From the IMG/VR virus record IMGVR_UViG_3300049432_000050, positions 1 through 63,668 of that record: DNA of 63,668 bases. The stretch is one strand, 5' to 3'. The translations under genes and the position numbers were made by a program. This document shows, one piece after another, positions 8,268 to 56,620 of the stretch. How positions within the stretch are numbered: the stretch's first letter is position 1; each line of letters opens with the position of its first letter. The notes under the pieces are model-generated. The model had not been told where the DNA came from. It made no database searches and saw nothing but the letters and a program-made list of their open reading frames with translations. The DNA comes from a virus.

Positions 8268-8398
8268 CCCTCGTTCTGCTCGTTCTGCTCGTCGTGTCTC
8301 TGCTCGGCATCCTCGTCCTGGACGCGCTGCTGCGTGGCTGGGGCGACACCCGGCAGACCCCGTACCCCGCACCCCGCGACTCAGGAGATCTGCCATGA
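8264..8398 (+). CDS. Small N-terminal membrane-anchor protein, 44 aa
   Basis: An N-terminal transmembrane helix of Leu and Val is followed by a short polar tail. It lies immediately upstream of, and overlaps, the response-regulator-like gene. It lacks any sensor domain, so it is not a recognisable signalling partner. Confidence 0.5.
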   Translation: MTLVLLVLLVVSLLGILVLDALLRGWGDTRQTPYPAPRDSGDLP

Positions 8399-9120
8399 CT
8401 GCCTTGAGCATCGAGCGGCCGGTCGCGCTGGTCGTCGAGCAGGACGACAAAGTCCGGGTCATGCTCGGTGACAACCTGACCGCGGACGGCTTGGAGGTCA
8501 TCACCGCGGGCGACGCTGGCGAGGGCTTGCGGCTCGCTGGCCGGCACGCGCCGGATGTCGCGGTCGTCGGCGTGAACGGCGGGTCGGGCCGGGACTTCGC
8601 GAAGGTCGTGCGTGCCGGCGAATCCGGCGTTGACCGCCGCTTGCCGATGGTGCTCCTCGGCGGCGATCAACGCGAGCTCGACACGCTCCGCGCGTTCCAG
8701 GCCGGGGCGGACGACTACATGGCGCGGGAGGGCTTCAGCTACCCGGTGCTGTACGCCCGTGTCCGGGCGTTGCTCAGGCGTGTCGAGCTGGATCAGCAGA
8801 CGCGGGAGCGGGTGCGGCGCGCGGGCGGCGTCACGATCGATGGTGCGACCAGGGTCGCGACGATCGAGGGTGGCCCGCCGATCAGCCTGACGAAGCACGA
8901 GTTCTCGCTGTTGTGGGCGCTCGCGGGGGATCCGTTGCGGATCTTCGCGAAGGAGGAGTTGCTGCGGATCATGGGCAACCGTGCGTCGGGGTCGTTGCGG
9001 ACCGTCGATTCGCACGCGTCCAGGTTGCGTAAGAAGTTGGGGAACCCGCCCGGCGTCGTCGTGGGGCGTTGGGGCGCGGGGTACTCGTTGCTGGCGGCCG
9101 AGAGCGCGGTGACGTTGTGA
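8395..9120 (+). CDS. OmpR-family response regulator with degenerate receiver
   Basis: 241 residues. Residues about 10-125 align with a receiver domain, but the positions needed for phosphorylation are lost. The acidic pair reads VEQDD, the acceptor Asp position is Gly in VAVVGVNGG, the Ser/Thr switch is Gly (VLLGGD), and the invariant Lys is missing in GADDYMAREGF. Residues about 145-235 form a winged-helix transcriptional domain (LTKHEFSLLWALAG, TVDSHASRLRKKL, WGAGYSLL). It is probably a phosphorylation-independent DNA-binding protein that mimics or competes with host regulators. A CAGGAGA site precedes the ATG. The wing sequence resembles Thermoleophilia regulators from memory, pointing to a host-derived gene. 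No kinase is encoded nearby. Confidence 0.85.
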   Translation: MTALSIERPVALVVEQDDKVRVMLGDNLTADGLEVITAGDAGEGLRLAGRHAPDVAVVGVNGGSGRDFAKVVRAGESGVDRRLPMVLLGGDQRELDTLRAFQAGADDYMAREGFSYPVLYARVRALLRRVELDQQTRERVRRAGGVTIDGATRVATIEGGPPISLTKHEFSLLWALAGDPLRIFAKEELLRIMGNRASGSLRTVDSHASRLRKKLGNPPGVVVGRWGAGYSLLAAESAVTL

Positions 9121-28281: not shown

Positions 28282-29229
28282 ATGCCGACCTTTCTGACCA
28301 TGCCGCAGGTTGCCACCAGGGCACTTGCGACGCTCCTGAACGATTCCGTGCTGATCGGGCTCGTCAGCCGCGACTACGACAGTGCGTTCGCTGGGAAGCA
28401 GGGCGCGACCGTCAACGTCCGCGTCCCGATGGTGTTCGCCGCCAACAGCTTCAACCGGTCGACGGGCATTCAGCTGCAGAACCCCGCTGAGGACACGTTC
28501 CCCGTCGTCTTGGACAAGATCGCGGACGTGTCGTTCGCGGTCACGTCGGAGGACCTGACGCTCACGATCGACGACTTCACCGACCGACTCCTGAACCCTG
28601 CGATGCAGGCGATCATCGAGATGGTCGAGGGCGACATCACGGAGAAGCTCGTTGACGCCGCGAACCAGACCGCGAACCCGGGCGCGACGAATGACTATCC
28701 GGCGAAGCAGTCCGGTGGCGGTGTCGTCACGACCCCGGACGGGACGCACCCGTCGAAGGTGCTGATCCCCGCCAAGACGAAGCTGAACCGCAACAAGATC
28801 CCGACCGTCAACCGGTTCGCGATCTTCTCCCCCGAAGCATCCGGTGTCGTGATCGGCGACTCGATCATGCATGAGGCCGACAAGCGCGGGAACACCGACG
28901 GGCTCGTCGAAGCCGCGATCGGCCGGAAGTTCGGGTTCGACTCGTACGAGTCCAACTACCTTGGGTATGGGTCCGGGGACCGCGGGCAGGCGGACGGCGT
29001 CGCGTTCCACAGGGACGCGATCACGCTCGCGACCAGGACCCTCGAACTGCCGCTCGGGAAGATCGGATCGCAGGCGGCTGTCAAGAGCTACAAGGGCCTC
29101 GGATTGCGAATCGTCTATGGATACGACATGACCTACAAACAAGACATTTGCTCCATCGATTTTCTTTACGGCACTCGTGCGGTCCGTCCGCAGGCCGCCG
29201 TTGAGCTCGATCTCGCGCAGGGCTCCTAA
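28282..29229 (+). CDS. Major capsid protein (P22 coat type)
   Basis: 315 residues. The N-terminus (LTMPQVATRALATLLND) with FAGKQGATVNVRVP and VTSEDLTLTIDDF matches the P22 gp5-like coat family common in actinophages. The HK97-type fold is expected. An AGGAG site and the position after the scaffold support it. The 159-bp gap before it contains only a short frame starting at 28141, which I do not count as a gene. Confidence 0.85.
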   Translation: MPTFLTMPQVATRALATLLNDSVLIGLVSRDYDSAFAGKQGATVNVRVPMVFAANSFNRSTGIQLQNPAEDTFPVVLDKIADVSFAVTSEDLTLTIDDFTDRLLNPAMQAIIEMVEGDITEKLVDAANQTANPGATNDYPAKQSGGGVVTTPDGTHPSKVLIPAKTKLNRNKIPTVNRFAIFSPEASGVVIGDSIMHEADKRGNTDGLVEAAIGRKFGFDSYESNYLGYGSGDRGQADGVAFHRDAITLATRTLELPLGKIGSQAAVKSYKGLGLRIVYGYDMTYKQDICSIDFLYGTRAVRPQAAVELDLAQGS

Positions 29230-29285: not shown

Positions 29286-30128
29286 ATGCCGAAGTACGAG
29301 GTGCGGCTGCGGTCGCAGACGGACGATCAGTCGAGACTCACGACGCTGTCCGCGGCCAGCGAGGAGGAAGCGAGGGCGCGCTGCGTGCTCGCTGAGCGCG
29401 AGGTCGTGGACTACACCCTGGACGGCGACGAGTACCTGACGGACGACGAGCGGGAAGCGATCGTCGACACTGTCCGTGTTGACGATGACGGGAAGATGGT
29501 GGGTGCGGACAAGCGGTTCCGCGGGAAGCTGCACCAGCACCTCCAACAGCAGCTGTACGTCGTCGAGGCGGTGCGGGAGGTTCCGTTGGACACGGGTCGG
29601 CTCGTCGCGGAGCTCGTGGCGCTCAAGCAGGTCCCGGAGACGTGGGACCGCATGCTGGAGGACATGCACGCCGCCGGGATCGATCTCGCTGCGGTGACCG
29701 CCTTGATCTACGGGGTGCCGACGAAGAATCAGTACGACGGGACGGCGGTCACGGACTGGGATACCGACACGATCAAGGCGGCGTTGCTGACCGCGTACAC
29801 GGTCAATCAGGACACGCACGATTTCTTCGATGACGTGTCCGGGACGGAGATCACGGGGACGGGGTACACCGCCGGGGGCGCGACGCTCGGGTCGAAGACG
29901 GCGACGTATGACACCGCGACCGACCAGACCCGGATGGACGCGGCCGACACGACATGGACGACGAGCACGCTCAGCGCAACGGATTGCGTGGTCTACAAGA
30001 GCACGGGGACCGCGAGCACGTCGCCGTTGATCGTCGCCGTTGACTTCGGTGGGACTGTCGCGACGACCGCCGGGACGTTTCAGGTCACCTGGGATTCGCT
30101 CGGGTTGCACGTCCTGGATCTGACGTAG
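29286..30128 (+). CDS. Head decoration/structural protein
   Basis: 280 residues. A helical charged N-terminal domain (about 1-130) is joined to a Thr/Ser/Asp-rich beta domain (about 145-280) with repeated TxT patterns and a FGGTV strand. The C-terminal domain occurs in several phages as a separate or fused head-associated module. A GTAAGGAGG site precedes the ATG. It is the gene right after the coat. Confidence 0.6.
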   Translation: MPKYEVRLRSQTDDQSRLTTLSAASEEEARARCVLAEREVVDYTLDGDEYLTDDEREAIVDTVRVDDDGKMVGADKRFRGKLHQHLQQQLYVVEAVREVPLDTGRLVAELVALKQVPETWDRMLEDMHAAGIDLAAVTALIYGVPTKNQYDGTAVTDWDTDTIKAALLTAYTVNQDTHDFFDDVSGTEITGTGYTAGGATLGSKTATYDTATDQTRMDAADTTWTTSTLSATDCVVYKSTGTASTSPLIVAVDFGGTVATTAGTFQVTWDSLGLHVLDLT

Positions 30129-30481: not shown

Positions 30482-32434
30482 ATGGCGGTCCGCAACTTCA
30501 CCGCGAACAACAGCGAGTTGCGCGTCCCCGTCATCGCGGGCTCCAACGTGGGGGCGGATTTCACGCTCGCGGTCCTCGTGAAGCCGAACACGCACGCGGA
30601 CTGGCAGGCGATGATGGCCGGGCAGACGTCGGCCGGGGCGTATCAGTGGGAGTTCGGCGTCGACCCGGCGGACCGCGTCGTGTTCTACACCGTCAACGGC
30701 AACGCGCTCAGGACGGCTGCGGCGACGGTCTCGACGACGACGATCTGGTACATCGTCGCGGTCACCCGCAGCGCGACCGCGTCTCGGTTCCACGTCTTCC
30801 CGTTCGGGGGCCCGTGGTCGCACGCGGATGCCTCCAGCGCGTTCGGGACCGCATCGTCGACGAGCGGCGGGTACATCTCGTTCGGTGAGGCGCAGGACGT
30901 CGACGACCTGAACATGCGCATGGCGACCGCGGCCGTCTGGAACGCGGCGCTGTCCGACGCGCAGATCGAGGCGCTCGCGACGGGGACCGCGACCGCGAAC
31001 TGGGTCAACCATGCCGTCGCCCCGATCGGCGTGTGGGACTTCAATCAGGCCGTGAACACCGACAACGTCCCGGACCTGAAGGCCGCGCACGCCACGATCA
31101 CGGGGACGATCACCGGCACGACGGACCTCAACGGGATCGCCGGGACGACGATCGTGACCGGCGACGACCCGCCATCGTGGACGTTCGGGGCGGGCGGGAC
31201 GAACGCGACGGTGACAGCGGTCGCAGCGATCGGGTCCGCCGCAGCGGTCACGCACGCGGTATCGGCTGGCAGCGTGGTCACGAGCCCGCCGGGTCTGGGT
31301 GTCGGTTCGGCGCCGGTGAGCACCATTGCGGCCGGGTCGGTGGTCGCGGCGCCTGCAGCACTGGGAGCCGGGACCTCGCCAGCGCCGGCAGCAGTGGCGG
31401 GCAGCGTGACGGTGGCCCCCGCTGCGCTCGGTGCGGGCTCGGCGCCCCCGCCGGTACCGGCGGGCGCATATGAGGCGCTGGTGCCCGCGGCACTCGGCGC
31501 AGCGGTCGCCACGACACCCGTCGTCGGTGCGGGCAGCCTCGTCGTCTCGCCTGCGGCGCTCGGCGGCGGGTCAAGCCCCGTCCCGGCCGTCACGGCTGGC
31601 AGCGCGGTCACGGTGCCACCCGCGATTGGCGTTGGTTCCGCTCCGGCGCCCGCCGTCGCTGGCGCCTACGAAGTGCTGGCGACGGCGGCGTTCGGGATCG
31701 GCAGCGCGCCCGCGCCCGCGGTTACGGCGGGCAGCGCCATCGCAGCGCCCGCCGCCACGGGAACGGGAACAGCGCCGCCGCCCGCCGCGATGGCCGGGAC
31801 GGACGTGCAGCCACCCGCTGCGGTCGGCGCAGTAGCAGCCCTGACGCACACCGCGACCGCCGCCAGTGTCGTGAGCGCCCCCCCAGGCGTCGGGGCCGGG
31901 GCCGCGCCGCCGCCGGCCGTGTCGGGGTCCGGCAGCGCGGTCGTCAGCGCCCTGCCCGGCATCGCGACAGGCACCGCCCCCGCCCCCACCATCGACGCCG
32001 CAAGCGTCGTCACGCCACCAGCCGGGCTCGGCGCGGGGAACGTCCCGCCGCCAGCCGTCGCGGCGATGCTGACCGTGGCCGCCCCCGCAGCGCTCGGCGC
32101 CGCCGTGACGACGACCCCGGCCCTGGCCGCGTCATCGACGGTGCACGCCCCGCCCGCGCTCGGAGCCGGTGTCGCGACGACCCCCGGCGTCACAGCGAGC
32201 TTCGCAGTGCTGGCGCCCGCGGCGCTCGGATCGGCGGTCCTCGGGACGCACACGCTGCGCGCCGACTCCACGATCCTGCCCCCAGCCGCAATCGGGACCG
32301 GCATCAGCCCGCCGCCCGGTGTGTCGGGTGTGACGCCGAGCGTCATCGTCACGGGGCACCGCGGGACACTCGACGCGCTCGAAGCCCTGCCGTCCGGTGT
32401 CGCTGTGGCGGGCATGGAACTCGTCGGAACCTAG
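30482..32434 (+). CDS. LamG-domain protein with 17 mucin-like repeats
   Basis: 650 residues. Residues about 1-175 form a concanavalin/LamG-like beta sandwich (FTLAVLVKPNT, WQWEFGV-type strands, WNAALSDAQIEALA). From about 243 to 616 there are some 17 tandem units of about 22 residues. Each carries a PAALGAG-type core and a TAPPPA-type turn, made almost only of Ala, Gly, Pro, Ser, Thr and Val. A 34-residue non-repeat tail ends the protein. LamG domains bind sugars or proteins. The repeats are likely an extended, possibly glycosylated stalk. It probably protrudes from the virion. The next gene but one opens a glycosyltransferase cassette. Confidence 0.75.
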   Translation: MAVRNFTANNSELRVPVIAGSNVGADFTLAVLVKPNTHADWQAMMAGQTSAGAYQWEFGVDPADRVVFYTVNGNALRTAAATVSTTTIWYIVAVTRSATASRFHVFPFGGPWSHADASSAFGTASSTSGGYISFGEAQDVDDLNMRMATAAVWNAALSDAQIEALATGTATANWVNHAVAPIGVWDFNQAVNTDNVPDLKAAHATITGTITGTTDLNGIAGTTIVTGDDPPSWTFGAGGTNATVTAVAAIGSAAAVTHAVSAGSVVTSPPGLGVGSAPVSTIAAGSVVAAPAALGAGTSPAPAAVAGSVTVAPAALGAGSAPPPVPAGAYEALVPAALGAAVATTPVVGAGSLVVSPAALGGGSSPVPAVTAGSAVTVPPAIGVGSAPAPAVAGAYEVLATAAFGIGSAPAPAVTAGSAIAAPAATGTGTAPPPAAMAGTDVQPPAAVGAVAALTHTATAASVVSAPPGVGAGAAPPPAVSGSGSAVVSALPGIATGTAPAPTIDAASVVTPPAGLGAGNVPPPAVAAMLTVAAPAALGAAVTTTPALAASSTVHAPPALGAGVATTPGVTASFAVLAPAALGSAVLGTHTLRADSTILPPAAIGTGISPPPGVSGVTPSVIVTGHRGTLDALEALPSGVAVAGMELVGT

Positions 32435-32442
32435 GAGGCGCA

Positions 32443-32886
32443 TTGGCGAACTTCGCGACACTCACCGACCTGGCAATCCGGCTCAGCCGCACAACCTCGG
32501 GGGAACTCACGGCCGCGCAGACCGCGCAAGGCAACCTGCTGCTCGAGCTCGCGTCCGGCCTGATCCGGGAGGCCGCGGGCAAGGCCGCGACCTGGGACCC
32601 GGTGCCGGTCCCGACGATTCTGCGCGCGGTGTGTCTGGAGGCGTGCCGCCGCGTGATGACAAACCCGGCCGGGGTCCGGTCGGAGGGCGAAACGCTCGGC
32701 GCGCATCAGCACTCCGTCAGCTACCCCGACGGCGCCGGCGACCTATACCTGACGGACCGTGAAGCGAAGCTCGTCAGGGCCGCCGCCGGGTTGGCGGGCA
32801 GCGCGACAACGATGCCGCTCACGACCGTGGACCTGCTGATCGAGCTCCGGGACACCGGAGAGATCGCGGCGTTCCCAGCCGAATGA
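32443..32886 (+). CDS. Head-tail connector (adaptor-type) protein
   Basis: 147 residues starting at TTG with a textbook TAGGAGG site. The opening (FATLTDLAIRLSRTTSGELT) and helical body with LEACRRVMTNPAG match gp6/gp15-like head-completion proteins that bind under the portal. Normally the next genes are the head-closure and tail-terminator proteins. Here they are displaced to 38601 by the glycosyltransferase cassette. Confidence 0.75.
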   Translation: MANFATLTDLAIRLSRTTSGELTAAQTAQGNLLLELASGLIREAAGKAATWDPVPVPTILRAVCLEACRRVMTNPAGVRSEGETLGAHQHSVSYPDGAGDLYLTDREAKLVRAAAGLAGSATTMPLTTVDLLIELRDTGEIAAFPAE

Positions 32887-33524
32887 GCCTCGTGATCCTC
32901 GTTCCCGTTCTCGCGCGCCCGCAGAACGTGGCGCCGCTGCTCACCTCGATCGGTCTGTCCACGCCGCAACCGCACCGGATCCTCTTCCTCGCGGACCCGG
33001 GCGACACCGCTGAGCACGCCGCGATCACGCACGCGGGCGGCTGGATGCTGTCCCCGGGAGGCGGGTACGCAGCGAAGGTCAACGCCGGGGTCCGCGCGAC
33101 CGACGAGCCGCTGATCCTGCTCGCCGCCGATGACGTTCGGCCCCATCCGGGATGGCTGCCGCGAGCACTCGCGCTGATCAATCGCGGCGCGCACGTCGTT
33201 GGTCTCAACGACCTCATCCCGCGCCCCTTGCGGCCGACGCACGCGACGCACTTCCTGATCACCCGCGAATACGCCGCGAAGCCATGCGCGGACGGGTCGC
33301 GGGGTCCACTCTGGGAGGGCTACGCGCACTGGCGCACCGACGATGAGCTGATCGCGACCGCCACAAAACGCGGGGTGTACGCCTACTGCCCGCAAGCGAT
33401 CGTCGAACACGTCGGCCATCCGATGACACCTGGCGGCGTCGATGACGACACATACAGGAAGGGACGCGCGCAGGCACGTCTCGACGGGAAGCGGTTCGCG
33501 CGGAGAGCGCACTTGTGGGCGTGA
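32883..33524 (+). CDS. GT-A (GT2-like) glycosyltransferase 1
   Basis: 213 residues. The nucleotide-sugar-binding start (VILVPVLARP), VNAGVRATDEPLILLAADD with an Asp-Asp metal site, and a C-terminal WRTDDELIATA segment indicate a GT-A fold. It would transfer a sugar from a nucleotide donor. It overlaps the connector gene by 4 bp and the next transferase by 10 bp. The acceptor is not visible from the sequence. Confidence 0.75.
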   Translation: MSLVILVPVLARPQNVAPLLTSIGLSTPQPHRILFLADPGDTAEHAAITHAGGWMLSPGGGYAAKVNAGVRATDEPLILLAADDVRPHPGWLPRALALINRGAHVVGLNDLIPRPLRPTHATHFLITREYAAKPCADGSRGPLWEGYAHWRTDDELIATATKRGVYAYCPQAIVEHVGHPMTPGGVDDDTYRKGRAQARLDGKRFARRAHLWA

Positions 33525-34141
33525 GCTGGGTCACGGTGACTACGGGCACGTTCGGCGACGAGTCGTGGCAGCGGCTCGCGCGGGAGCGCGCCGGCGCGTC
33601 GGTGCCGGCCGGGGTGCCGTGGATTCACGTGCATGGCGACACGATCGCAGCGGCGCGAAACGCAGCGCTCGCAAGAGTTGAGAGTGCGTTCGTGATCGGA
33701 CTCGATGCCGACGACCAGCTTCCGGGCATCGAGTACATCGAGGCGATGGCCCGCGGCACAGCTGACGTCCGCGTGCCGCTCGTGACCTACGTCCGAGACG
33801 GGCGGGCGCAACGGCCGTGGCAGCCCCGCGTCGCCGGGCACACGCACGACTGCGTTGCGGACTGCCTGGAAGCGGGGAACTGGGTGCCGATCGGGGCATG
33901 CGCCCGAACGAGCCTGCTGCGGACCGTCGGCTTCCATGACTTCGGCTGGTCGGAGGATTGGGCGACGTGGGCTTTCGCCGCTCGGGCGGGCGCATCGTTC
34001 GAACTGATCCGCGACGCGGTATACGTCGCGCACGTCGACACGGCTGGCCGCAATCGTGGACAGAGCCGAGAGGCACGGGACGCGGCGCACTGGGAGATCC
34101 ACCGGACGGTATGGCCCGAACGCTACGCAGAGGCAACGTGA
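33515..34141 (+). CDS. GT-A glycosyltransferase 2
   Basis: 208 residues. AARNAALARVESAFVIGLDADDQLPG carries a clear DADD metal-binding motif, and GWSEDWATWAFAARAG is the conserved acceptor-loop region of GT2 enzymes. The N-terminal strand is short. It starts at GTG within the end of the previous gene. Confidence 0.75.
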   Translation: MGVSWVTVTTGTFGDESWQRLARERAGASVPAGVPWIHVHGDTIAAARNAALARVESAFVIGLDADDQLPGIEYIEAMARGTADVRVPLVTYVRDGRAQRPWQPRVAGHTHDCVADCLEAGNWVPIGACARTSLLRTVGFHDFGWSEDWATWAFAARAGASFELIRDAVYVAHVDTAGRNRGQSREARDAAHWEIHRTVWPERYAEAT

Positions 34142-34824
34142 TCGCGCTGCTCGTGATGACGGACGGCCGCCGCGAGTACCTGCAGCAAACCCTCGCCCGG
34201 TTCGACGAGATGGCGGCCGGCACGATCACGCGCCGGGTGATCCACGACGACTCCGGCGACGCCGACTACGCGCACTGGCTACGCCGAGCGCTGCCGGGAT
34301 ACGAGATCGTCGTAACGGGTGGCCGAACGGGGTTCGCGGCGGCAATGGCATCCGCGTGGCGCACGGTCGCGGATGGCCCCGAACCGTTCGTGATGCACCT
34401 CGAAGACGACTTCCTGTTCACGCGCCCCGTCAACCTCGACGACCTCACCGGCCTACTCGCCGACCGGCCGTATCTCGCGCAGGTCGCGTTTCGCCGGCAG
34501 GCATGGGGCGCGGAGATCGAGCACGGCGGGTTTATGGCGATGATGCCGGGCGCGTACAGCGAGCACACCGACGGACGGCGGTTCTGGGTGGAAACGATCC
34601 GCAACTACTCCACGAACCCGAGCGTGCATCGCCGCGAGCTCTGCCACACAGGGTGGCCACAGTCGCAGCACAGCGAGGGCCTGTACGGCTTCCAGCTGCG
34701 CGAGACCGGGTTGCCGTGGGGTGTCGCCCCGGACGATGTGCGGTTCGGGTTCTGGGGGTCAATGGCGGACGGCGGCGAATGGATCTGGCACATCGGGGAC
34801 TATCGGCGGGGACACACGTACTAG
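34138..34824 (+). CDS. GT-A glycosyltransferase 3
   Basis: 228 residues. Start strands (MIALLVMTDGR), GFAAAMASAWRTVADGPEPF and HLEDDFLF (EDD metal site) fit a GT-A fold. A C-terminal Trp/Gly-rich segment (FGFWGSMADGGEWIWH) may contact the acceptor. Both ends overlap neighbours by 1-4 bp. Confidence 0.75.
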   Translation: MIALLVMTDGRREYLQQTLARFDEMAAGTITRRVIHDDSGDADYAHWLRRALPGYEIVVTGGRTGFAAAMASAWRTVADGPEPFVMHLEDDFLFTRPVNLDDLTGLLADRPYLAQVAFRRQAWGAEIEHGGFMAMMPGAYSEHTDGRRFWVETIRNYSTNPSVHRRELCHTGWPQSQHSEGLYGFQLRETGLPWGVAPDDVRFGFWGSMADGGEWIWHIGDYRRGHTY

Positions 34825-35459
34825 TGCGCGTCTGTGTCCCCTACCGCCCGGACTGCGGGCATCGCGACAGACTGTGGGCAGCATGCGAAACGCGATGGCG
34901 GACGCTGCTTCCCGACGTTGAGATCGTCACCGGGCAGGACGCCGGGGAGCCAATGAACCGGGCGCGATGGCGCAACCGGGCGGCGGCCGGCACGTGGGAC
35001 GTCGCGGTGTTCGCGGACGCCGACATCATGGTCAGCATGCCCGAGCAGGTCACGCTTGCCGTCGCGACCGCCGGGCGAACGGGGCACCTCACCTACGCGC
35101 ATGACTGGCGCGCACAGCTGTCACAGCAGGGAACGACGGAGGTGCTGCAGGGCGGCGACCCGTGCCGCGCGGACATTGAGGCGTGGGATCCGCACACGTT
35201 CTCCGGGTGCTACGCCGTTCCGCGCCGCTTGTGGGACATCGTCGGCGGGTTCGACGAGCGGTTCGCCGGGTGGGGATGGGAGGATCTGGCGTTCATGCGG
35301 GCATGCGGCGCTCTCGGCGGCGGCCTGCAACGCGCACCGGGCGTCATCTACCACTGCTGGCACCCACAGGAACACGACGACGGCAACGAGGAGTTGTGGC
35401 GCGCGTATGAGCGGGCGGGCTGGGCTCCCCACAAGATGAGGCAGGTGATCGCACGGTGA
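34824..35459 (+). CDS. GT-A glycosyltransferase 4 (GT7/GT27-like)
   Basis: 211 residues. VCVPYRPDCGHRDRLW opens the donor-binding fold. VAVFADADIMV holds the DxD motif. VGGFDERFAGWGWEDLAF is the well-known galactosyltransferase-type acceptor motif. It starts at GTG sharing a base with the previous stop. Confidence 0.85.
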   Translation: MRVCVPYRPDCGHRDRLWAACETRWRTLLPDVEIVTGQDAGEPMNRARWRNRAAAGTWDVAVFADADIMVSMPEQVTLAVATAGRTGHLTYAHDWRAQLSQQGTTEVLQGGDPCRADIEAWDPHTFSGCYAVPRRLWDIVGGFDERFAGWGWEDLAFMRACGALGGGLQRAPGVIYHCWHPQEHDDGNEELWRAYERAGWAPHKMRQVIAR

Positions 35460-35995
35460 CCGCAACGAACGTCGGGAAATGGGACCGCTGGTTCGCGCTG
35501 CTCGGCCCCGACTGGGAACCCTTCGGGCAAACCGAAACGTACGAGCTCGCCGCCACGTGGCTGAAGCCGTGCGCCCTGGTCGCTGACTGGGGATGCGGAA
35601 AAGGCTGGATGCGGCACCACATCAAGCGCGACCGCTACTACGGAGTGGATGGGTCGCGGTCCCCGTTCGCGGATGAGATCGCGGACCTCGCGGACTACCA
35701 CCGGGAGTCGCCGGGGATCGTGCTGCGGCACGTCCTCGAGCATGATTACCGGTGGGAACGAATTCTCGCGAACGCGTGCGCAGCGTTCCAGCAGCGGATG
35801 GCGCTGGTGTTGTTCACGCCGCTCGGGGACACGACACGCGAGATCGCGTATGCCGCTGATCCGGGGGTGCCGGACATCTCGTTCGCGTTCTCAGACATCA
35901 AGCGGCACCTGGAGCCGTTCGCGTGGCGCCACGACACGCTGAGCACCGCATCACAGTACGGGACGGAAACGATCTTCTACGTGGAGCGCCCGTGA
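35456..35995 (+). CDS. SAM-dependent methyltransferase
   Basis: 179 residues. VADWGCGKGWM near residue 44 is motif I of class I methyltransferases, and YYGVDGSRSP is the acidic ribose-binding strand. The location inside a glycosyltransferase cassette suggests methylation of a sugar hydroxyl, but the substrate is not shown by the sequence. Confidence 0.75.
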   Translation: MTATNVGKWDRWFALLGPDWEPFGQTETYELAATWLKPCALVADWGCGKGWMRHHIKRDRYYGVDGSRSPFADEIADLADYHRESPGIVLRHVLEHDYRWERILANACAAFQQRMALVLFTPLGDTTREIAYAADPGVPDISFAFSDIKRHLEPFAWRHDTLSTASQYGTETIFYVERP

Positions 35996-36036
35996 TGGCG
36001 CTACCAGAAATGCAACGAACGGGAATGAGGTACTGA
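35995..36036 (+). CDS. Possible 13-residue micro-ORF
   Basis: The frame shares single bases with the upstream stop and the downstream ATG (TGATG at both ends). It may serve only to carry ribosomes across a 40-nt gap to the gene at 36036. Confidence 0.3.
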   Translation: MALPEMQRTGMRY

Positions 36037-36305
36037 TGAATCTTCGGCATGTGGTGGCAGTTGGTCTCGTGCGGGCCGCAGCGCGTGTACTCGCGGGGCA
36101 CGACGATCATGTCGTGATCCTGAACACGAACCGCATGCGGAACCTCCCCGGCAAACCAGACGCGGGGCTGATCAAGCCGTTCCTGCTCAGCGGCGGCAAG
36201 ACGGCGTTGTCTTTCTCGCCTGACGACGCACCGGAGTCTCTTGGCACGCCCGTGCCAGAACGTATCGCGCGTTTGGCCGGATACGACGTCGATCGCATCT
36301 CATGA
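36036..36305 (+). CDS. Hypothetical protein, 89 aa
   Basis: A small alpha/beta protein (HVVAVGLVRAAARVLAG, DDHVVILNTNRM). It lies in the glycosylation cassette but resembles no transferase. It is coupled to an 18-residue frame downstream. Confidence 0.5.
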   Translation: MNLRHVVAVGLVRAAARVLAGHDDHVVILNTNRMRNLPGKPDAGLIKPFLLSGGKTALSFSPDDAPESLGTPVPERIARLAGYDVDRIS

Positions 36306-36358
36306 CTACGGCTAAGCGGGAACGCGCGGACACGGCGTTCTGGGCGGTGCGGCTGTGA
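36302..36358 (+). CDS. Possible 18-residue peptide
   Basis: An ATGA overlap links it to the 89-residue gene. It may be the truncated start of a gene displaced when the HNH gene entered, since it ends just before the HNH promoter. Confidence 0.25.
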   Translation: MTTAKRERADTAFWAVRL

Positions 36359-36378
36359 CGCTCTGCCGATGTATCTGT

Positions 36379-36420
36379 GACAATAGGAGGACCCGCCAGC
36401 GCTTGCGACGCTGCGGGTCC
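36379..36420 (+). promoter_or_regulatory. Promoter box and 5'-UTR hairpin of the inserted HNH gene
   Basis: GACAAT (36379-36384), with GTGACG 18 bp upstream, is followed by a hairpin with arms 36389-36401 and 36409-36420 and one bulged C. GGAGGATCGAC then precedes the ATG at 36448. Such a hairpin can block read-through translation of the endonuclease from the late operon. Confidence 0.5.
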
Positions 36421-36447
36421 CGGCCAATCCTGAGACGGAGGATCGAC

Positions 36448-37158
36448 ATGAACGATGATACGCCAGCGGAGGTCATGGACCGCTTCTGGCAACGCGTCGA
36501 TAAGCGCCCCGACTGCTGGCTTTGGACGGGTGGCCGTCGGAAGGGCAGACCGATCTTCTACGTCAGCAGTGAACGAGGCTACATCTACGGACGTCGCTTT
36601 GCGTGGGAGATCAACGGCGGCGAGCTGGACTCAAAGACGCTAGTCAAGGCAGCCTGCGGAGTGACGCTATGCGTCAACCCCGAACACGCCGTTCTGGTCC
36701 CGCGATGCCAAGTGGGCACGCAAGATATCGCTGCTGAGAAGCGGTGCGGAGGCTGCAAGGAGATGCTTCCCGCGCATGCCTTTAGTCGAAACCGCCGGAC
36801 ATCTACAGGTCTGTCGTCATGGTGTCGATCTTGCGTGCAGGAGAAGGCGCGTAACTACCGACTGAGCGATCCCGATGGGTGGCGCGAGAACAAGCTCTTC
36901 GTACGCTACGGGATCACCGCTGAGCAATACGATGCCCTGTTGGCGGCACATCGAGGGGTCTGCGCGGTGTGCGAGCGACCCAACAATCAGAACGACCGTC
37001 GCACAGGCCAGCACCGCCGACTGCACATCGACCATGACCATGCGACCGGCAAGGTTCGCGGACTGCTGTGCGCGAAATGCAATTCAGCTCTCGGACACGC
37101 CGACGACAGCCCGGAGCGACTACGCGCGATGGCCCTATATCTGGAGCGCTCCACATGA
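36448..37158 (+). CDS. HNH/endonuclease VII-type homing endonuclease
   Basis: 236 residues. The N-terminal part (DCWLWTGGRRKGRPIFYV, CVNPEHAVLV) is an HNH_3-like DNA-binding fold. The middle has a CGGCKEML zinc pair. The C-terminal part (YGITAEQYDALLAAHRGVCAVC, LHIDHDHATGKVRGLLC, CNSALGHADD) is a complete recombination-endonuclease-VII domain with the catalytic DHDH. It interrupts the glycosyltransferase cassette with its own promoter and hairpin, so it is probably a mobile insertion. Confidence 0.85.
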   Translation: MNDDTPAEVMDRFWQRVDKRPDCWLWTGGRRKGRPIFYVSSERGYIYGRRFAWEINGGELDSKTLVKAACGVTLCVNPEHAVLVPRCQVGTQDIAAEKRCGGCKEMLPAHAFSRNRRTSTGLSSWCRSCVQEKARNYRLSDPDGWRENKLFVRYGITAEQYDALLAAHRGVCAVCERPNNQNDRRTGQHRRLHIDHDHATGKVRGLLCAKCNSALGHADDSPERLRAMALYLERST

Positions 37159-37949
37159 CAACGGTCGCTGTCAGCCTCGTGAAAGACGAGCTGGACATCC
37201 TGCCGTTCACGCTCGCGCACATGCTGGAGCAATGCGACGCGATCATCGTCGCGGACAACATGAGCCGCGACGGGACACGCGAACTGCTGCACGGGTGGAT
37301 GGACGGTCGCCTGACCGTCATCGATGACCTCGAGCCCGCGTATCTCCAGTCGGAGAAGATGAGCGCGCTCGCGGAGCGGGCCCGCGGGATGGGCGCGACC
37401 TGGGTCCTGCCGTGGGACAGCGACGAGGCGTGGTTTGCGCGCAGTGGCCGCCGGATCGCTGACGTGCTGGCCGGGCTGCCGCGAGACGTGCTGATCGTGG
37501 AGGCCGACCTGTGGGATCACGTCCCGACGAGCCTTGACCCCGACGACGCGAACCCGCTGACCCGGATCGGGTGGCGCCGCTCCTACCCGGGCCCGCTGCC
37601 GAAGGTCGCGGTCCGCGCAGTGGACGGTGTCGTGATTGAGCAGGGCAACCACGGCGCGTGGTTCCCGCACACGGACCTGCCGGCGAAGGTGTCGAACCTC
37701 CTCACGCTCCGCCACTATGCCCTGCGGTCACCGGAGCAGATGATCCGCAAGGCACGCAACGGCGGCGCGGCGTACGCGGCAACCACCCTGCCGGAGCACG
37801 TCGGTGCGCACTGGCGGCGATGGTCGATGCTCAGCGACGAGCAGTTGCGCGAGGTGTTCGAGCGCTACTACTTCGCGGCGGACCCGGAGGCCGGTCCGAT
37901 GCCGCTGACGTTCGACCCGGCGCCGGTGCGATGCCCATTGCCGTCCTAG
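37155..37949 (+). CDS. GT2-family glycosyltransferase 5
   Basis: 264 residues. VAVSLVKDELDILPFTLAHML, with AIIVADNMSRDGT, is the classic GT2 start. VLPWDSDEAWF supplies the DxD site. The C-terminal half has GNHGAWFPHTDL and a helical RRWSMLSDEQLREVFERYYF. It overlaps the HNH gene by 4 bp, so its original ribosome-binding context was lost or replaced by the insertion. Confidence 0.85.
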   Translation: MTTVAVSLVKDELDILPFTLAHMLEQCDAIIVADNMSRDGTRELLHGWMDGRLTVIDDLEPAYLQSEKMSALAERARGMGATWVLPWDSDEAWFARSGRRIADVLAGLPRDVLIVEADLWDHVPTSLDPDDANPLTRIGWRRSYPGPLPKVAVRAVDGVVIEQGNHGAWFPHTDLPAKVSNLLTLRHYALRSPEQMIRKARNGGAAYAATTLPEHVGAHWRRWSMLSDEQLREVFERYYFAADPEAGPMPLTFDPAPVRCPLPS

Positions 37950-38662
37950 TGCCTTGGAGGACCTCGTCGTGTCCGCATCGCAAGCGGGCGTTCGCGTGGG
38001 TGCTCGCAAGGCTCGCCGTGCACGGCTGGCCGATCATCGTCGGGAGGCACGACGACGGGCCGTGGTGCAAGGCGATGGCGGTCGCGGACGCGCTCGATCA
38101 GACAGCCGCGGATGTCCTCGTTCTGCATGACGCGGACGTGATCGCGGATGGGCTCGCTGAGGCCGTGCGAACGGTGCAGGCGGGTGCCGCGTGGGCGATG
38201 GCGCACCGCAGCGTCCACCGACTCACGGAGGCCGCCACCGGCCGCCTGATCGCCGGGGAGGACCCGGCGGGACTGGCGGTCGCGGAGCGCGCGTACCGCG
38301 GCGTCGAAGGCGGCGGCATCACCATCGTGCGGCGCGACGTGTACGAGGACTGCCCGCTGGACCCGCGGTTCCTCGGATGGTCCGGCGAGGACGAAGCGTT
38401 CGGCTGGGCACTCAGGACGCTGAACGGCCCGCCGTGGCGGCCGCTGGGGCACGCGCCGCTGTGGCACTGCTGGCATCCGTCACAGTCGCGGGCAACGAGG
38501 GCGCGCGGTTCGCTCGTGAGTTGGGACCTCAGAAAGAGATACGCGCGAGCACAGCACGACCCGACCGCCATGAGGGCACTGATCGAGGAGGCGAAGACCT
38601 GTGAGCTTGACGGACCTGCTGAACCGGCCGGTGACGATCGTCAGGCGGTCCGAGGTCGATGA
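37931..38662 (+). CDS. GT-A glycosyltransferase 6
   Basis: 243 residues. MPIAVLVPWRTSSCPHRKRA, VLVLHDADVIAD (DAD metal site) and VEGGGITIVRRDVYEDC, then GWSGEDEAFGWAL, match the GT7-like acceptor arrangement seen in transferase 4. It overlaps transferase 5 by 19 bp and the connector gene by 62 bp, the largest overlap in the structural region. This suggests the right-hand junction of the cassette. Confidence 0.8.
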   Translation: MPIAVLVPWRTSSCPHRKRAFAWVLARLAVHGWPIIVGRHDDGPWCKAMAVADALDQTAADVLVLHDADVIADGLAEAVRTVQAGAAWAMAHRSVHRLTEAATGRLIAGEDPAGLAVAERAYRGVEGGGITIVRRDVYEDCPLDPRFLGWSGEDEAFGWALRTLNGPPWRPLGHAPLWHCWHPSQSRATRARGSLVSWDLRKRYARAQHDPTAMRALIEEAKTCELDGPAEPAGDDRQAVRGR

Positions 38663-38945
38663 CGACGCGTTCGACCCCGCCCCCGGCGAAACGCTGGTCG
38701 TCACGATCGGGGAACTTCAGCAGACGCAGCGCACCGAGCCCGTCGCAGAAGGCGAGCTGTCCGTCACGACGTGGCTGCTCGTGCTCCCGGCGGGCACGGT
38801 CATCGACACGGGGGATGGCGTGATCGCGGACGGCTCCGTGTACGAGGTCATCGGTGACAGCTGGCGAGCCCGTAACCCGCGCACGAGACTGGAAAGCCAT
38901 GTGGAATGCACGATCAAGCGAACCGGTGGGGAGGGCGGATCGTGA
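38601..38945 (+). CDS. Head-closure/head-tail joining protein
   Basis: 114 residues from GTG. A small beta-barrel pattern (VTIVRRSEVDDDAF, TWLLVLPAGTVIDTGDGVI) with VYEVIGDSWRARNP matches the gp16/FII-like stopper family. It should close the filled head below the adaptor. Its start lies inside the end of transferase 6. Confidence 0.7.
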   Translation: MSLTDLLNRPVTIVRRSEVDDDAFDPAPGETLVVTIGELQQTQRTEPVAEGELSVTTWLLVLPAGTVIDTGDGVIADGSVYEVIGDSWRARNPRTRLESHVECTIKRTGGEGGS

Positions 38946-53351: not shown

Positions 53352-54839
53352 TCACGCCGGGATCGGTTCGGAATCCGGCGCATCGTCCGCGACGGCGAAC
53401 GACTCGTTGACCTCCGCTATGAGCTCATCGGGCACCCAGTAGGCGCGAAACCGGCGCGGCGTCATCGCGGTAGACGCGTCTGCCGGCGAAACCCACGGCA
53501 GCCATGAAAGCCACCGCGGCACCGTGTGCGCCTCGAACTCGTCCGCGGCCTCGTCCACCTTGACGTAGCCCACCCCCGGCAGCGACGGCGGGATCTCATC
53601 CGCTCGCGCGCCCGACATGTACGCGGTGCGGCCGAGAATCTTGCGGACCGTGTCCACGTTGTCGATGCGCAGAGCGATCTTTACGGGGATCTCGTCGCGG
53701 TCCCGCACGATCTCCTTCGTGGCGTTCTGGACGGCGCCGACGACGCTGCATCCCGGTGCGCGCCCGACGTTGATGAGTTGCCGCACCGACTCGCCGACCT
53801 TCTTATCCGCGGCGAGGACACCCTGCTCGTCGAAGAAGATGACCGTGAGAGGCCGCTCCGGCGTCGGTGTCAGCTTGCGCTCACCGCGTCCCTTCAGGTA
53901 CGGCAAGTTGTCCTTCATTCGCGTAACGCCCTTCGCGAGCAGCGCCTCGATGTCCTCGTCGGTATCCGCGAACTCAGCGAACAGATTGCGGCCCGGGAAC
54001 AACTCGACGCCGCCCTTCGCGTCCGCGACCCAAATCTCGACGGAGCCCTCCCGGATATACGGGATCAGGTGCAGGATGATGCTCCAGAACACCGAGCCCT
54101 TGCCCGCCCCCGTCTGCCCAACGACGAGGACGTGCGACCCGAGCACTGGGGCCGTAACCTTCCGCCCGCGCTCGTCGACGCCGATCGGGATGCGGCGCAG
54201 ATCCACCTCGCTCGTGGACGCCGGGATGCCGGGGAACGGGACGACGTCAGCGAGCGGGTCGTCCCCGCGGGGAAGCTCGAGCGTGACGTAGTCCGTCTGC
54301 GGGATGTCCGTCACGCGGCACTCCCGCGCGAGGAACGCTTTTGCGAGGTTCTGCGCGGTCTGCCCGTCATGCCCGACGAACTCGCGTGTCGTCTGTCCCG
54401 GCAGCACCTTCACGCGGACCGTGTCACCGGAGCGCGTGCAGGTCACCTTTGCGAGCTTCGGGACCTTGTCGAATCCGTTGTCAACGATCCCGGTGAGGTT
54501 CTGCCCAGCGAGCACGCGCTGCCACCGCCGCTCATACAGTCGCCACCTGCGGAACGCGCTGTACAGCCTGACGCCGATCAGGCCACGGTACGCCGCGAGG
54601 ACGCCCAGGCGGCCTGTTGTGCGCGCGAGGACGCGGCCCGTGATGTTCCATGCGATCAGGGCCAGGGCACCGTAGAACACGACGCCGACCGCGGCATGCA
54701 AGGTCGTCACGACCGCGAGCGCGACGAACGCGGCGAGCAGGCCGGCGCGGACCGGAAACCGGTATGCCGCGACAGCGACGATCGCGACCGTCTGACACAC
54801 AATCACGATGAGGTTCCAGATCAGGACCGCCCAATCCAT
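53352..54839 (-). CDS. FtsK/SpoIIIE (TraB-like) DNA translocase
   Basis: 495 residues. Three N-terminal transmembrane helices (within about 5-70) precede a cytoplasmic linker and the motor. The motor has GQTGAGKGS (Walker A near 240), VADAKGGVEL, LTVIFFDEQ (Walker B near 332) and VVGAVQNATKE. The architecture resembles the transfer proteins of Streptomyces conjugative plasmids and cell-division FtsK, but there is no gamma DNA-recognition domain. It could move DNA across the membrane or act in segregation. It is convergent with the RusA-like gene and 4 nt from the methyltransferase gene. Confidence 0.8.
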   Translation of the reverse strand: MDWAVLIWNLIVIVCQTVAIVAVAAYRFPVRAGLLAAFVALAVVTTLHAAVGVVFYGALALIAWNITGRVLARTTGRLGVLAAYRGLIGVRLYSAFRRWRLYERRWQRVLAGQNLTGIVDNGFDKVPKLAKVTCTRSGDTVRVKVLPGQTTREFVGHDGQTAQNLAKAFLARECRVTDIPQTDYVTLELPRGDDPLADVVPFPGIPASTSEVDLRRIPIGVDERGRKVTAPVLGSHVLVVGQTGAGKGSVFWSIILHLIPYIREGSVEIWVADAKGGVELFPGRNLFAEFADTDEDIEALLAKGVTRMKDNLPYLKGRGERKLTPTPERPLTVIFFDEQGVLAADKKVGESVRQLINVGRAPGCSVVGAVQNATKEIVRDRDEIPVKIALRIDNVDTVRKILGRTAYMSGARADEIPPSLPGVGYVKVDEAADEFEAHTVPRWLSWLPWVSPADASTAMTPRRFRAYWVPDELIAEVNESFAVADDAPDSEPIPA

Positions 54840-56173
54840 CAGGCACCCACGTCGAAGAGGGAGCCCTGACCTGTCGCGGCGACCGCGGCGCGTGCCTGCT
54901 CGGCCTCCAGGCGCTTGACGAGCGTCATGCCGTCCGGGTGCTCAGACCACCACGCAATACGAGCCTCAGCGATCGCGACGTACTCCGGCTCGCGTTCGAT
55001 GCCGACGAAGTCAAAGCCCTCCAGCTCCGTCGCGCAGCCCGTTGTGCCGCTGCCGGCGAACGGGTCGAGCACCGTCCCGCTGGGCGGGGTGACGAGCCGC
55101 ACGAGCCAGCGCATCAGGCTCAAACTCTTAACAGTCGGATGGGTATTGCGCCGTGGCCGTGGGACGTTGGAACGGCCGGGCCGCGGCATCCTTTCGTGCA
55201 ATGTTCCGCTGGGGCGATGGTCGAATGGGTCGCTCTCGCGCTCCTCGAACCCCTCGAGTCCCGCGTTGCGCTCGGCGCTGGAACTCTTCGCGCAGTAGAA
55301 CGCGCGTCGTTCCGTGTCCTCATGCCGGTGGTCGAAGGTGGGGAAGAACCGCGACGCGCCACCCGAATCGCCCGTGCTGATGACCTTACCTATGGGTGGC
55401 GCAGGGATACCGTTGTAGCCCCCTAGACCGTAATCGCGTCGGGCGGTACCGGGATGAGTCGTCAGCGTTCCCGTCTGCTCATCCAATAAACGGACCGGGC
55501 AGTCCTCGACGCACCTGTACGCGGCGACCTCTTCGGTACCGTCAGCATCCGCGTAGCCCGCGCTCATATCGCCGTTGCGCCCAACCCCGGCCTTGAAGTC
55601 CAGCGATACGCCGGGGCTCTCGCTGCCGAACTGCGGGTTAGGCACAGCGGGGCTCGCGGACTTCACGCGTCGTGTCCCTACCGGCTCGCAACGGGGCGAG
55701 TGACTGAGGATCGTGTTCGCGGGCCAACGACCCAGGTTGGCGTTGTGGCCACCCTCGTCTCCGGCCTCACCGGCGTTCCATCCCCATCCATCAGCACGTC
55801 GTCCGCCGCTCACTGACGCCGGCACATCCTTTGACGAGCCCACCCGGCACCCGTCCACGTTCAGTGCCCCGGTCCCGCGCGCGAGGACGTTCGCGCTCAC
55901 GGTCCCGCTCAAGGGTTTGCGGGCGACGACGATCGGCTCATGCGCGGGCTTGAGAGCGGTCCCCCACCCGGCCCAGCGCTCAGCGTCGGGGGTGGCGGGC
56001 GCGGTGACGGGAACCATGCCATTTATGGTTTCCGACCGCGACGTAAAGCCATCCGTGGCACCCGTCGTTCCCTGCCCCGCGTAGGTTGCGCCGCGCGTGC
56101 CATCCGGGAACTGGGGTCGCATTCCGACGACCTCCCGCTCCACTCCCGCCGCCTTGTCGATCGCCTTGCTCAC
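54839..56173 (-). CDS. DNA methyltransferase, C-terminal part (motif I half)
   Basis: 444 residues. KAIDKAAGVEREVVG begins the part of the protein that usually follows GSGFP directly. ALKPAHEPIVVARKPL and, near the end, TVLDPFAGSGTTGCA (motif I) with GFDFVGIEREPEY place it in the beta class (order IV then I) of adenine or N4-cytosine methyltransferases. It lies in the same frame as the N-terminal half at 56192-56620, separated only by a TGA and six codons. No Shine-Dalgarno sequence precedes the GTG at 56173. See finding on the in-frame stop. Confidence 0.75.
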   Translation of the reverse strand: MSKAIDKAAGVEREVVGMRPQFPDGTRGATYAGQGTTGATDGFTSRSETINGMVPVTAPATPDAERWAGWGTALKPAHEPIVVARKPLSGTVSANVLARGTGALNVDGCRVGSSKDVPASVSGGRRADGWGWNAGEAGDEGGHNANLGRWPANTILSHSPRCEPVGTRRVKSASPAVPNPQFGSESPGVSLDFKAGVGRNGDMSAGYADADGTEEVAAYRCVEDCPVRLLDEQTGTLTTHPGTARRDYGLGGYNGIPAPPIGKVISTGDSGGASRFFPTFDHRHEDTERRAFYCAKSSSAERNAGLEGFEERESDPFDHRPSGTLHERMPRPGRSNVPRPRRNTHPTVKSLSLMRWLVRLVTPPSGTVLDPFAGSGTTGCATELEGFDFVGIEREPEYVAIAEARIAWWSEHPDGMTLVKRLEAEQARAAVAATGQGSLFDVGA

Positions 56174-56191: not shown

Positions 56192-56620
56192 TCAGGGGAA
56201 GCCGCTCCCGTACAACCAGTCCAGTTCTGGTCCGAGCGACTCCCCATTGGCATCACCTCCCCCGTTCAGGTGGAGGATGCGGTCACGGATCTCGAAACCG
56301 GCGAGGCGGATCGCGATGCACAGCAGGTCATACGTCCTAGTGCCCCCGAAGGCAACGAGGTGCGCCCCGGGTTTCAGGACGCGGTAGACCTCTCGCCAGT
56401 ACGCGGGTCCGGGCACAAAGCTATCCCAGGAACTCCCCATGAATCCATTGCCGCGATGGACGTAGTCGTCTCCGGCGAGCCAGTGCGTCAAGACCTCCGC
56501 GATGTCCGGCTCACGGCTCAGGCCGTAGGGCGGATCAGTCACGCACGCGTCAACACTCGCTTCGGGCATCGCGGCCATCGCCTCGACGCAGTTGCCGTGG
56601 ATGATGCGCGAGCCCATCAC
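56192..56620 (-). CDS. DNA methyltransferase, N-terminal part (motif IV half)
   Basis: 142 residues. VDACVTDPPYGLS is motif IV. MGSSWDSF, REVYRVLKPGAHLVAFGG and DRILHLNGG are the following conserved elements. It ends at WLYGSGFP and TGA. Typical relatives run on as FPKS without a stop. The half-protein lacks the SAM-binding motif and cannot act alone. It overlaps the coiled-coil gene upstream by 4 bp. Confidence 0.8.
   Translation of the reverse strand: MMGSRIIHGNCVEAMAAMPEASVDACVTDPPYGLSREPDIAEVLTHWLAGDDYVHRGNGFMGSSWDSFVPGPAYWREVYRVLKPGAHLVAFGGTRTYDLLCIAIRLAGFEIRDRILHLNGGGDANGESLGPELDWLYGSGFP

What the first reader, a model, noticed from the sequence alone, without database searches (positions are those of the whole stretch)
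32883..38662. Six-glycosyltransferase plus methyltransferase cassette inside the head-tail connector genes
The adaptor gene (32443) and the head-closure gene (38601) are normally adjacent but are split by 5.7 kb. That stretch carries six GT-A enzymes, each with a DxD-type motif, and a class I methyltransferase. Six transferases are enough for a multi-sugar glycan, perhaps methylated. The late-operon position points to modification of virion proteins rather than DNA or host wall.
Basis: partly seen in the sequence, partly recalled or inferred. Interest (0 to 1): 0.85.

Follow-up and report, generated by a model that had tools for sequence, protein, structure and literature searches.

The report
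Phage sugar-coating cassette in connector genes
A soil-type phage, probably of actinobacteria, carries six sugar-transferring enzymes and a methyltransferase locked between two virion-assembly genes; the same cassette sits at that spot in about 20 related uncultured phages, most likely to build a sugar coat on the virus particle.

Summary
Adaptor Ad1 (32443-32886) and head-closure Hc1 (38601-38945) are split by 5.7 kb carrying six GT-A glycosyltransferases and a class I methyltransferase.

The cassette is not an oddity of one genome. In 62 relatives Ad1 and Hc1 are adjacent; in 12 records (window included) they are separated by GT1-GT2-(GT3)-[methyltransferase slot]-GT5-GT6 in fixed order; eight more show the same with one flank undetected. 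Genes overlap start to stop from Ad1 through Hc1, tying the cassette to virion genes; the GTs tested are under purifying selection. The methyltransferase slot is filled by unrelated enzymes or empty. In phages with other capsid families the cassette again mostly sits among head or tail genes.

GT4/GT6 are homologous to GTs of Che8 and Corndog-type mycobacteriophages, whose virions are reported glycosylated. GT5's nearest solved structures are peptide-directed transferases. Virion-protein glycosylation by an assembly line with a swappable methyl cap is best supported; sugars, order and acceptor are unproven. A LamG/22-residue-repeat protein (30482-32434) is one candidate acceptor.

The parts
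32443..32886 (+). head-tail adaptor Ad1 (5' flank of the cassette)
   Evidence: phrog_137 E 1.7e-24; overlaps GT1 by 4 nt (ATGA)
32883..33524 (+). GT1, GT-A family 2 glycosyltransferase, 213 aa; motif AADD (D84 invariant)
   Evidence: PF00535 24.9 bits over cut-off; 22-member alignment
33515..34141 (+). GT2, GT-A glycosyltransferase, 208 aa (start could also be 33521); motif DADD 64-67
   Evidence: PF00535 2.5e-4, phrog_9549 1.9e-5; alignment; PglI among solved relatives
34138..34824 (+). GT3, GT-A glycosyltransferase, 228 aa; motif E89-D-D91
   Evidence: phrog_3047 2.2e-12; AF2 pLDDT 94.9; Foldseek to RmlT/TarP/GnT-I, best E 5e-8; alignment
34824..35459 (+). GT4, GT7-like (beta-1,4-galactosyltransferase family) enzyme, 211 aa; DAD 65-67 and GWED
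   Evidence: PF02709 over cut-off, phrog_1721 7.1e-18; homologous to Firecracker gp35 and Che8 gp109
35456..35995 (+). class I SAM methyltransferase (MTa), 179 aa; occupies the variable methyltransferase slot
   Evidence: PF13489 2.2e-5, sub-threshold; conserved in L090 and L110 next to GT3
36036..36305 (+). weakly coding ORF, part of the private insertion
   Evidence: low coding score; no homologue in any locus
36448..37158 (+). HNH / endonuclease VII-type endonuclease, own Shine-Dalgarno; mobile insertion between MT and GT5
   Evidence: PF02945 2.8e-24, phrog_2633 1.6e-38; GC 0.61; absent from the cassette in all relatives
37155..37949 (+). GT5, glycosyltransferase (PF13704), 264 aa; D88xDE91; proposed peptide-directed initiator
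   Evidence: PF13704 2.4e-11; GmaR 6.7e-11 in PDB profile search; AF2 pLDDT 94.9, top folds ThuS/SunS
37931..38662 (+). GT6, GT7-like glycosyltransferase, 243 aa; DAD 67-69, E153 D154; overlaps Hc1
   Evidence: phrog_1721 8.4e-10; beta4GalT7 4.7e-6 in PDB profile search; alignment
38601..38945 (+). head closure Hc1 (3' flank of the cassette)
   Evidence: phrog_501 2.5e-10; overlaps GT6
28282..29229 (+). major capsid protein, possible acceptor
   Evidence: phrog_283 2.3e-49
29286..30128 (+). 280-aa protein with a phrog_644 domain; a homologue lies next to a GT cassette in L108
   Evidence: phrog_644 7.5e-32; L108 17404-17856
30482..32434 (+). LamG domain plus 22-residue Ala/Val/Thr/Ser/Pro repeats; candidate glycan acceptor
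   Evidence: PF13385 4.3e-8; 22/44-residue period and 18% Ser+Thr, similar protein in L108

Best explanation
The cassette is a phage-encoded protein-glycosylation line expressed with the late head-tail genes. Shown here: six GT-A enzymes plus a methyltransferase, co-linear and translationally overlapping with Ad1 and Hc1; a conserved core (GT1, GT2, usually GT3, GT5, GT6) in 20 related records; purifying selection on the GTs tested; a methyltransferase slot filled by non-orthologous enzymes. Inferred: soluble GTs use host nucleotide sugars in the cytoplasm; GT5 attaches the first sugar to Ser/Thr of a virion protein (capsid, tail tube, or the LamG-repeat protein); GT1, GT2, GT3 and the GT7-like GT4/GT6 extend it, the latter perhaps with galactose or a related sugar; the methyltransferase caps a sugar. 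The coat would sit on the particle surface; its selective value (shielding, stability, adhesion, escape from recognition) is not known.
For: Position and coupling: Ad1>GT1 start/stop overlap and GT6>Hc1 overlap in most relatives; no promoter-like site in 27.5-41.5 kb. Recurrence: 62 loci with adjacent Ad1/Hc1 and no GT; 12 records with 3.3-7.4 kb between them, all holding the cassette; 8 further partial cases. Unrelated virion backgrounds: between portal/head-morphogenesis and capsid genes (L104, L108), between capsid and tape measure (L090), beside tape measure (L107, L110), beside capsid, protease or terminase genes (L111, L112, L121, GX15bay). Homology of GT4/GT6 to Che8 gp109 and Firecracker gp35; Che8, Corndog and Myrna virions are reported glycosylated (PMC12363180), and Corndog carries O-methyltransferase + 2 GT + GlcNAc-transferase between portal and protease (PMC4351075). 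GT5 nearest solved structures are the peptide GTs ThuS/SunS, and by sequence GmaR. NG86 dN/dS 0.05-0.3 in the pairs where dS could be computed. Soluble GTs.
Against: No glycan, virion or isolate has been examined. GT-A fold and nucleotide-binding-half matches do not fix donor or acceptor; the GmaR match covers only the N-terminal half and the Foldseek TM-scores are about 0.5. GT3's best folds are wall-teichoic-acid transferases RmlT/TarP. No single acceptor candidate beyond the core virion proteins is shared by all carriers: L010, L092 and L097 have little or nothing between capsid and Ad1 genes. Most cassette loci were recruited by searching with the GTs, so prevalence is not estimated. One carrier (L096) has the cassette beside replication helicases.
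Confidence: 0.78

Rival explanations
1. The cassette modifies a host surface polymer (teichoic acid, capsule or exopolysaccharide), for example to block superinfection or readsorption of progeny.
For: GT3's closest folds are the wall-teichoic-acid transferases RmlT and TarP; GT2's profile matches TagF and PglI; GT1 weakly matches ArnC.
Against: No membrane-anchored GT, flippase or polyprenyl-phosphate transferase was recognised in the cassette; none of the GTs has a membrane segment. Fixed late position overlapping virion genes is odd for a surface-conversion module. GT5 resembles peptide GTs; GT4/GT6 relatives occur in phages with glycosylated virions.
Confidence: 0.11
2. The cassette glycosylates a hypermodified base in the phage DNA, as T4 glucosylates hydroxymethylcytosine.
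For: Phages do glycosylate DNA (established knowledge); several GTs are present.
Against: No thymidylate-synthase/hydroxymethylase family protein in the record (the record may be incomplete); GT-A family 2/7 enzymes rather than known DNA glucosyltransferases; location in the connector operon; protein-directed relatives.
Confidence: 0.03
3. The genes glycosylate a secreted or intracellular non-virion target (small peptide, host protein or metabolite) and sit in the late operon by chance of insertion.
For: ThuS/SunS, the closest folds to GT5, modify secreted bacteriocin peptides.
Against: Recurrence in virion gene clusters of several unrelated capsid families; no bacteriocin-like peptide gene was noted in the cassettes.
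Confidence: 0.05
4. The stretch is a passenger island of mobile genes without function for the phage.
For: An HNH endonuclease insertion is present.
Against: HNH is private to this phage; the GT core is conserved in order, in frame and under purifying selection over large distances.
Confidence: 0.02

Closest known systems
Cluster O mycobacteriophages (Corndog, Firecracker): O-methyltransferase + two GTs + GlcNAc-transferase between portal and protease (PMC4351075)
   Same: Methyltransferase plus several GTs inside the head gene cluster, translationally overlapping; Firecracker gp35 is homologous to GT4/GT6; capsid glycosylation requiring Corndog gp38 reported (PMC12363180).
   Different: Different insertion point (portal/protease, not adaptor/head closure); no GT1- or GT5-type enzyme detected; fewer GTs; methyltransferase not orthologous to MTa.
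Che8 (cluster F1) GTs gp108-110, virion glycosylation (Freeman et al. 2023, read only through PMC12363180 and PMC11652166)
   Same: gp109 homologous to GT4/GT6; gp108 weakly to GT2, gp110 very weakly to GT3; capsid and tail proteins glycosylated.
   Different: Genes lie at the right genome end, away from structural genes; three GTs and no methyltransferase listed beside them.
prophiGD91-2 prophage GT/methyltransferase cluster (L007)
   Same: Four GTs, two methyltransferases and an HNH gene just upstream of terminase; two GT4/GT6-type enzymes.
   Different: Upstream of terminase; no GT1 or GT5; order not conserved.
Chlorovirus PBCV-1 capsid glycosylation (A064R: two rhamnosyltransferase domains plus a methyltransferase domain; PMC7019647)
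   Same: Virus-encoded cytoplasmic GTs and a methyltransferase build a methylated glycan on the capsid protein.
   Different: Eukaryotic large DNA virus; no homology tested; N-linked.

Membership tests
Phage virion-protein glycosylation system (Che8/Corndog type) | Phage encodes GTs homologous to those of glycosylated-virion phages | tested here: met
   Window GT4 vs Firecracker gp35 and Che8 gp109: pairwise E 1e-9 and 5e-9; seed-only and cassette-only profiles of GT4/GT6 2.5e-8 or better. GT2 weak, GT3 very weak, GT1 and GT5 no match.
Phage virion-protein glycosylation system (Che8/Corndog type) | Sugars present on capsid or tail proteins | not testable with these tools
   No virion exists for this uncultured phage.
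Phage virion-protein glycosylation system (Che8/Corndog type) | Loss of the GT removes the glycan | not testable with these tools
   Needs a cultured phage and gene deletion.
Cluster O cassette (specific relative) | Located between portal and capsid protease genes | tested here: not met
   Located between Ad1 and Hc1; so not a member of that cassette, though it may work like it.
GT-A glycosyltransferase (each of six) | Recognised GT domain or GT-A fold | tested here: met
   GT1, GT4, GT5 over Pfam cut-off; GT2, GT6 by sub-threshold Pfam plus phrogs; GT3 by phrogs and predicted fold.
GT-A glycosyltransferase (each of six) | Conserved DxD-type metal/nucleotide-binding motif | tested here: met
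   Acidic residues conserved in alignments of 5-27 sequences.
Class I SAM methyltransferase acting on sugars | SAM-binding Rossmann fold / motif I | tested here: inconclusive
   Methyltransf_23 2.2e-5 but below cut-off; DWGxGKGW conserved. Substrate untested; an FkbM-type enzyme occupies the slot in L011.
T4-like DNA glucosylation | Hydroxymethylated-base biosynthesis gene in the phage | tested here: not met
   No PF00303 match in the record; the record may be incomplete.
Serotype-conversion (Gtr-type) surface modification | Membrane flippase and membrane-bound GT | tested here: not met
   No membrane segment in any of the six GTs or the methyltransferase; no flippase-like gene recognised in the cassette.

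The most novel reading that the evidence does not exclude
A modular, vertically kept 'glycan assembly line' for phage particles: a fixed core of five GTs, with GT5 as peptide-directed initiator, fused by overlapping codons to the head-tail connector operon, and an exchangeable methyltransferase slot that changes the outer cap between lineages, coating among other things a mucin-like LamG/22-residue-repeat head protein. This would be a multi-sugar, methyl-capped O-glycosylation pathway made by a bacteriophage, with lineage-specific variation of the particle surface.
Probability: 0.25. Interest if true: 0.82.

Novelty: new variant of a known kind. Interest (0 to 1): 0.6.

Why it matters
Virion glycosylation is established for only a few phages, each with few GTs. 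This finding gives a defined, recurrent cassette with conserved order in about 20 uncultured phages and in phages with other capsid families, a likely initiator (GT5) and a swappable methyl-cap position. It makes testable which enzyme starts the glycan, which virion protein receives it and why phages spend about 9% of a genome on it. Phage annotation should treat GT genes between connector genes as a virion-modification signature.

Tried and rejected
MCP loop as acceptor marker: the GGGVVTTPDGTH loop is found only in the window clade (window, L008, L009, L010), not in the other cassette carriers, so it does not track the cassette. The repeat protein as obligatory acceptor: rejected, since several carriers have no repeat ORF between capsid and Ad1. 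Host prophages: a genome scan with a capsid alignment found 31 actinobacterial loci, none with the cassette, so host is inferred only at the phylum level. Corndog itself was not retrievable by the accessions tried; Firecracker was used instead. Orthology of the methyltransferases across carriers: rejected, 19-31% identity to the window's and different Pfam families. HNH as a cassette part: rejected, absent from the relatives' cassettes and compositionally distinct. Freeman et al. 2023 is not held in the library and is cited only through other papers. First profiles of GT4/GT6 had absorbed L007 during iteration, so homology to isolates was repeated with seed-only and cassette-only profiles. Wider literature searches found no description of a connector-junction GT cassette, in open-access papers only.
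Full report
What is there. The window is an IMG/VR virus record of 63,668 bases. Between head-tail adaptor Ad1 (32443-32886; phrog_137) and head closure Hc1 (38601-38945; phrog_501) lie, on one strand, GT1, GT2, GT3, GT4, a methyltransferase (MTa), a weak ORF, an HNH/endonuclease VII gene, GT5 and GT6. GT1, GT4 and GT5 pass Pfam cut-offs; GT2 and GT6 are supported by sub-threshold Pfam and phrogs; GT3 has no Pfam hit but matches phrog_3047, and its AlphaFold2 model (pLDDT 94.9) matches GT-A enzymes RmlT, TarP and GnT-I. The acidic residues of the DxD-type motifs are kept across families of 5-27 sequences.

The HNH insertion. The 1.16 kb from 35996 to 37154 has GC 0.61-0.63 against 0.69 around it and poor codon usage. 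The weak ORF has no homologue in any locus, and the HNH has only distant matches outside the cassettes' MT-GT5 junction. In relatives the gene before GT5 runs directly into it. It is best read as a mobile endonuclease inserted between MTa and GT5.

The cassette is a recurrent unit. I built profile HMMs for the flanking and cassette genes and searched about 150 loci fetched with the capsid protein, GT5 and GT1 from IMG/VR, plus isolates. Of 78 loci with both Ad1 and Hc1, 62 have them adjacent (gap -191 to 772 nt) with no GT between; 16 loci, from 12 distinct records including the window, have 3.3-7.4 kb between them, and every one contains GT1, GT2, GT5 and GT6 in that order, most with GT3. Eight more records show the same cassette with one flank not detected or cut off (L012, L013, L095, L099, L100, L101, L105, L106); L013 is rearranged and some records may be near-copies. 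Because many loci were recruited with the GTs, this is not a prevalence estimate. In a capsid-protein tree the trait is strongly clustered, needing three changes against a shuffled mean of 15.8 (long branches make deep placement unsure).

Locked into the operon. In most carriers Ad1 and GT1 overlap (often ATGA) and GT6 overlaps Hc1; GT1>GT2, GT3>GT5, GT5>GT6 overlaps of 1-19 nt are common. No sigma-70-like promoter is seen from 27.5 to 41.5 kb (such scans do not cover all phage promoters). NG86 dN/dS between close pairs is about 0.05-0.3 for the GTs where dS could be computed (GT2 window/L011 was saturated), so the enzymes are kept.

The methyltransferase slot varies. The window has MTa (also in L090 and L110); L010 and others MTb; L011 and L089 carry MTc (Methyltransf_24) and MTd (FkbM-type); L092, L093, L097 and L098 have none. 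The GT core is fixed while the methyl-adding enzyme is exchanged, as expected if it tailors the outer part of a glycan. This is inference.

Other phage backgrounds. GT cassettes of the same type lie between portal or head-morphogenesis genes and an unrelated major head protein (phrog_777) in L104 and L108, between capsid and tape-measure genes in L090, next to tape measure in L107 and L110, near protease, capsid or terminase genes in L121, L111 and L112, and just upstream of terminase in GX15bay. One (L096) sits beside replication helicases. Prophages of the capsid family in 31 actinobacterial loci lack the cassette; the host is therefore probably an actinomycete, not resolved further.

How it probably works. 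GT5's profile finds GmaR, the flagellin O-GlcNAc transferase, at 6.7e-11 and SunS at 0.0016 (the GmaR match is to the N-terminal half), and its predicted structure (pLDDT 94.9) is closest to the glycocin peptide transferases ThuS and SunS. That GmaR and SunS/ThuS act on proteins or peptides is established knowledge. I therefore place GT5 as the enzyme that acts on the polypeptide. GT4 and GT6 are one family related to beta-1,4-galactosyltransferases and would extend the chain; GT1, GT2 and GT3 add further sugars; MTa methylates. The GTs have no membrane segments, and neither nucleotide-sugar epimerase nor NTP-transferase families were found in the record, so host donors are the likely source. 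No thymidylate-synthase family gene is present.

Link to experimentally glycosylated virions. Window GT4 matches Firecracker gp35 (E 1e-9) and Che8 gp109 (E 5e-9) directly, and cassette-only profiles confirm this; GT2 matches Che8 gp108 weakly. Che8, Corndog and Myrna virions are reported to be glycosylated, with Che8 gp110 and Corndog gp38 essential for capsid glycosylation (PMC12363180, citing Freeman et al. 2023, which I could not read). Corndog's cluster carries an O-methyltransferase and three sugar transferases between portal and protease, and its authors proposed capsid modification from under-represented capsid peptides (PMC4351075). PBCV-1 shows the same logic in a eukaryotic virus: A064R joins two rhamnosyltransferases and a methyltransferase for the capsid glycan (PMC7019647).

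Candidate acceptors. The capsid and tail proteins are shared by the carriers at this locus. A LamG protein with 22-residue Ala/Thr/Ser/Pro/Val repeats (30482-32434) lies just 5' of Ad1; a similar one, together with a homologue of the 29286-30128 protein, lies beside the cassette of the unrelated phage L108; the related contig L009 has a 779-residue repeat protein there. Several carriers lack it at this position, so it can be at most one acceptor.

Verdict. The cassette is a new variant of a known kind: larger, at a different junction and more regularly conserved than the described cases.

Noticed in passing
window 36036-37158: Low-GC insertion with an HNH/endonuclease VII gene between the methyltransferase and GT5, private to this phage; likely a homing-type mobile element.
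   Followed up: yes
window 30482-32434; L108 18745-20793; L009 10776-13115; L138 1-924: Proteins with Ser/Thr/Ala/Pro/Val-rich repeats (22-residue period in the window, L108 and L138; LamG-like head in the window and L108) in records that also carry GT genes; possible mucin-like head fibre.
   Followed up: partly
window 54839-56173 and 56192-56617 (- strand): N6/N4 DNA methylase (PF01555) appears split into two adjacent ORFs, each matching a different part of the profile.
   Followed up: no
window 8395-9120: Response-regulator-like protein with an OmpR-type C-terminal domain (PF00486 1.6e-13), unusual for a phage.
   Followed up: no
L010 12719-13225: 169-aa protein with a HELLH metalloprotease-like motif inside the GT cassette; no Pfam match.
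   Followed up: partly
L058 11209-11868, L059 13159-13818, L050 5786-6250: A single GT6-type gene downstream of the capsid gene; in L058 and L059 Ad1 and Hc1 are adjacent, so this may be a minimal version.
   Followed up: no
window 53352-54839 (- strand): Protein with a sub-threshold FtsK/SpoIIIE match; no integrase family match in the record.
   Followed up: no
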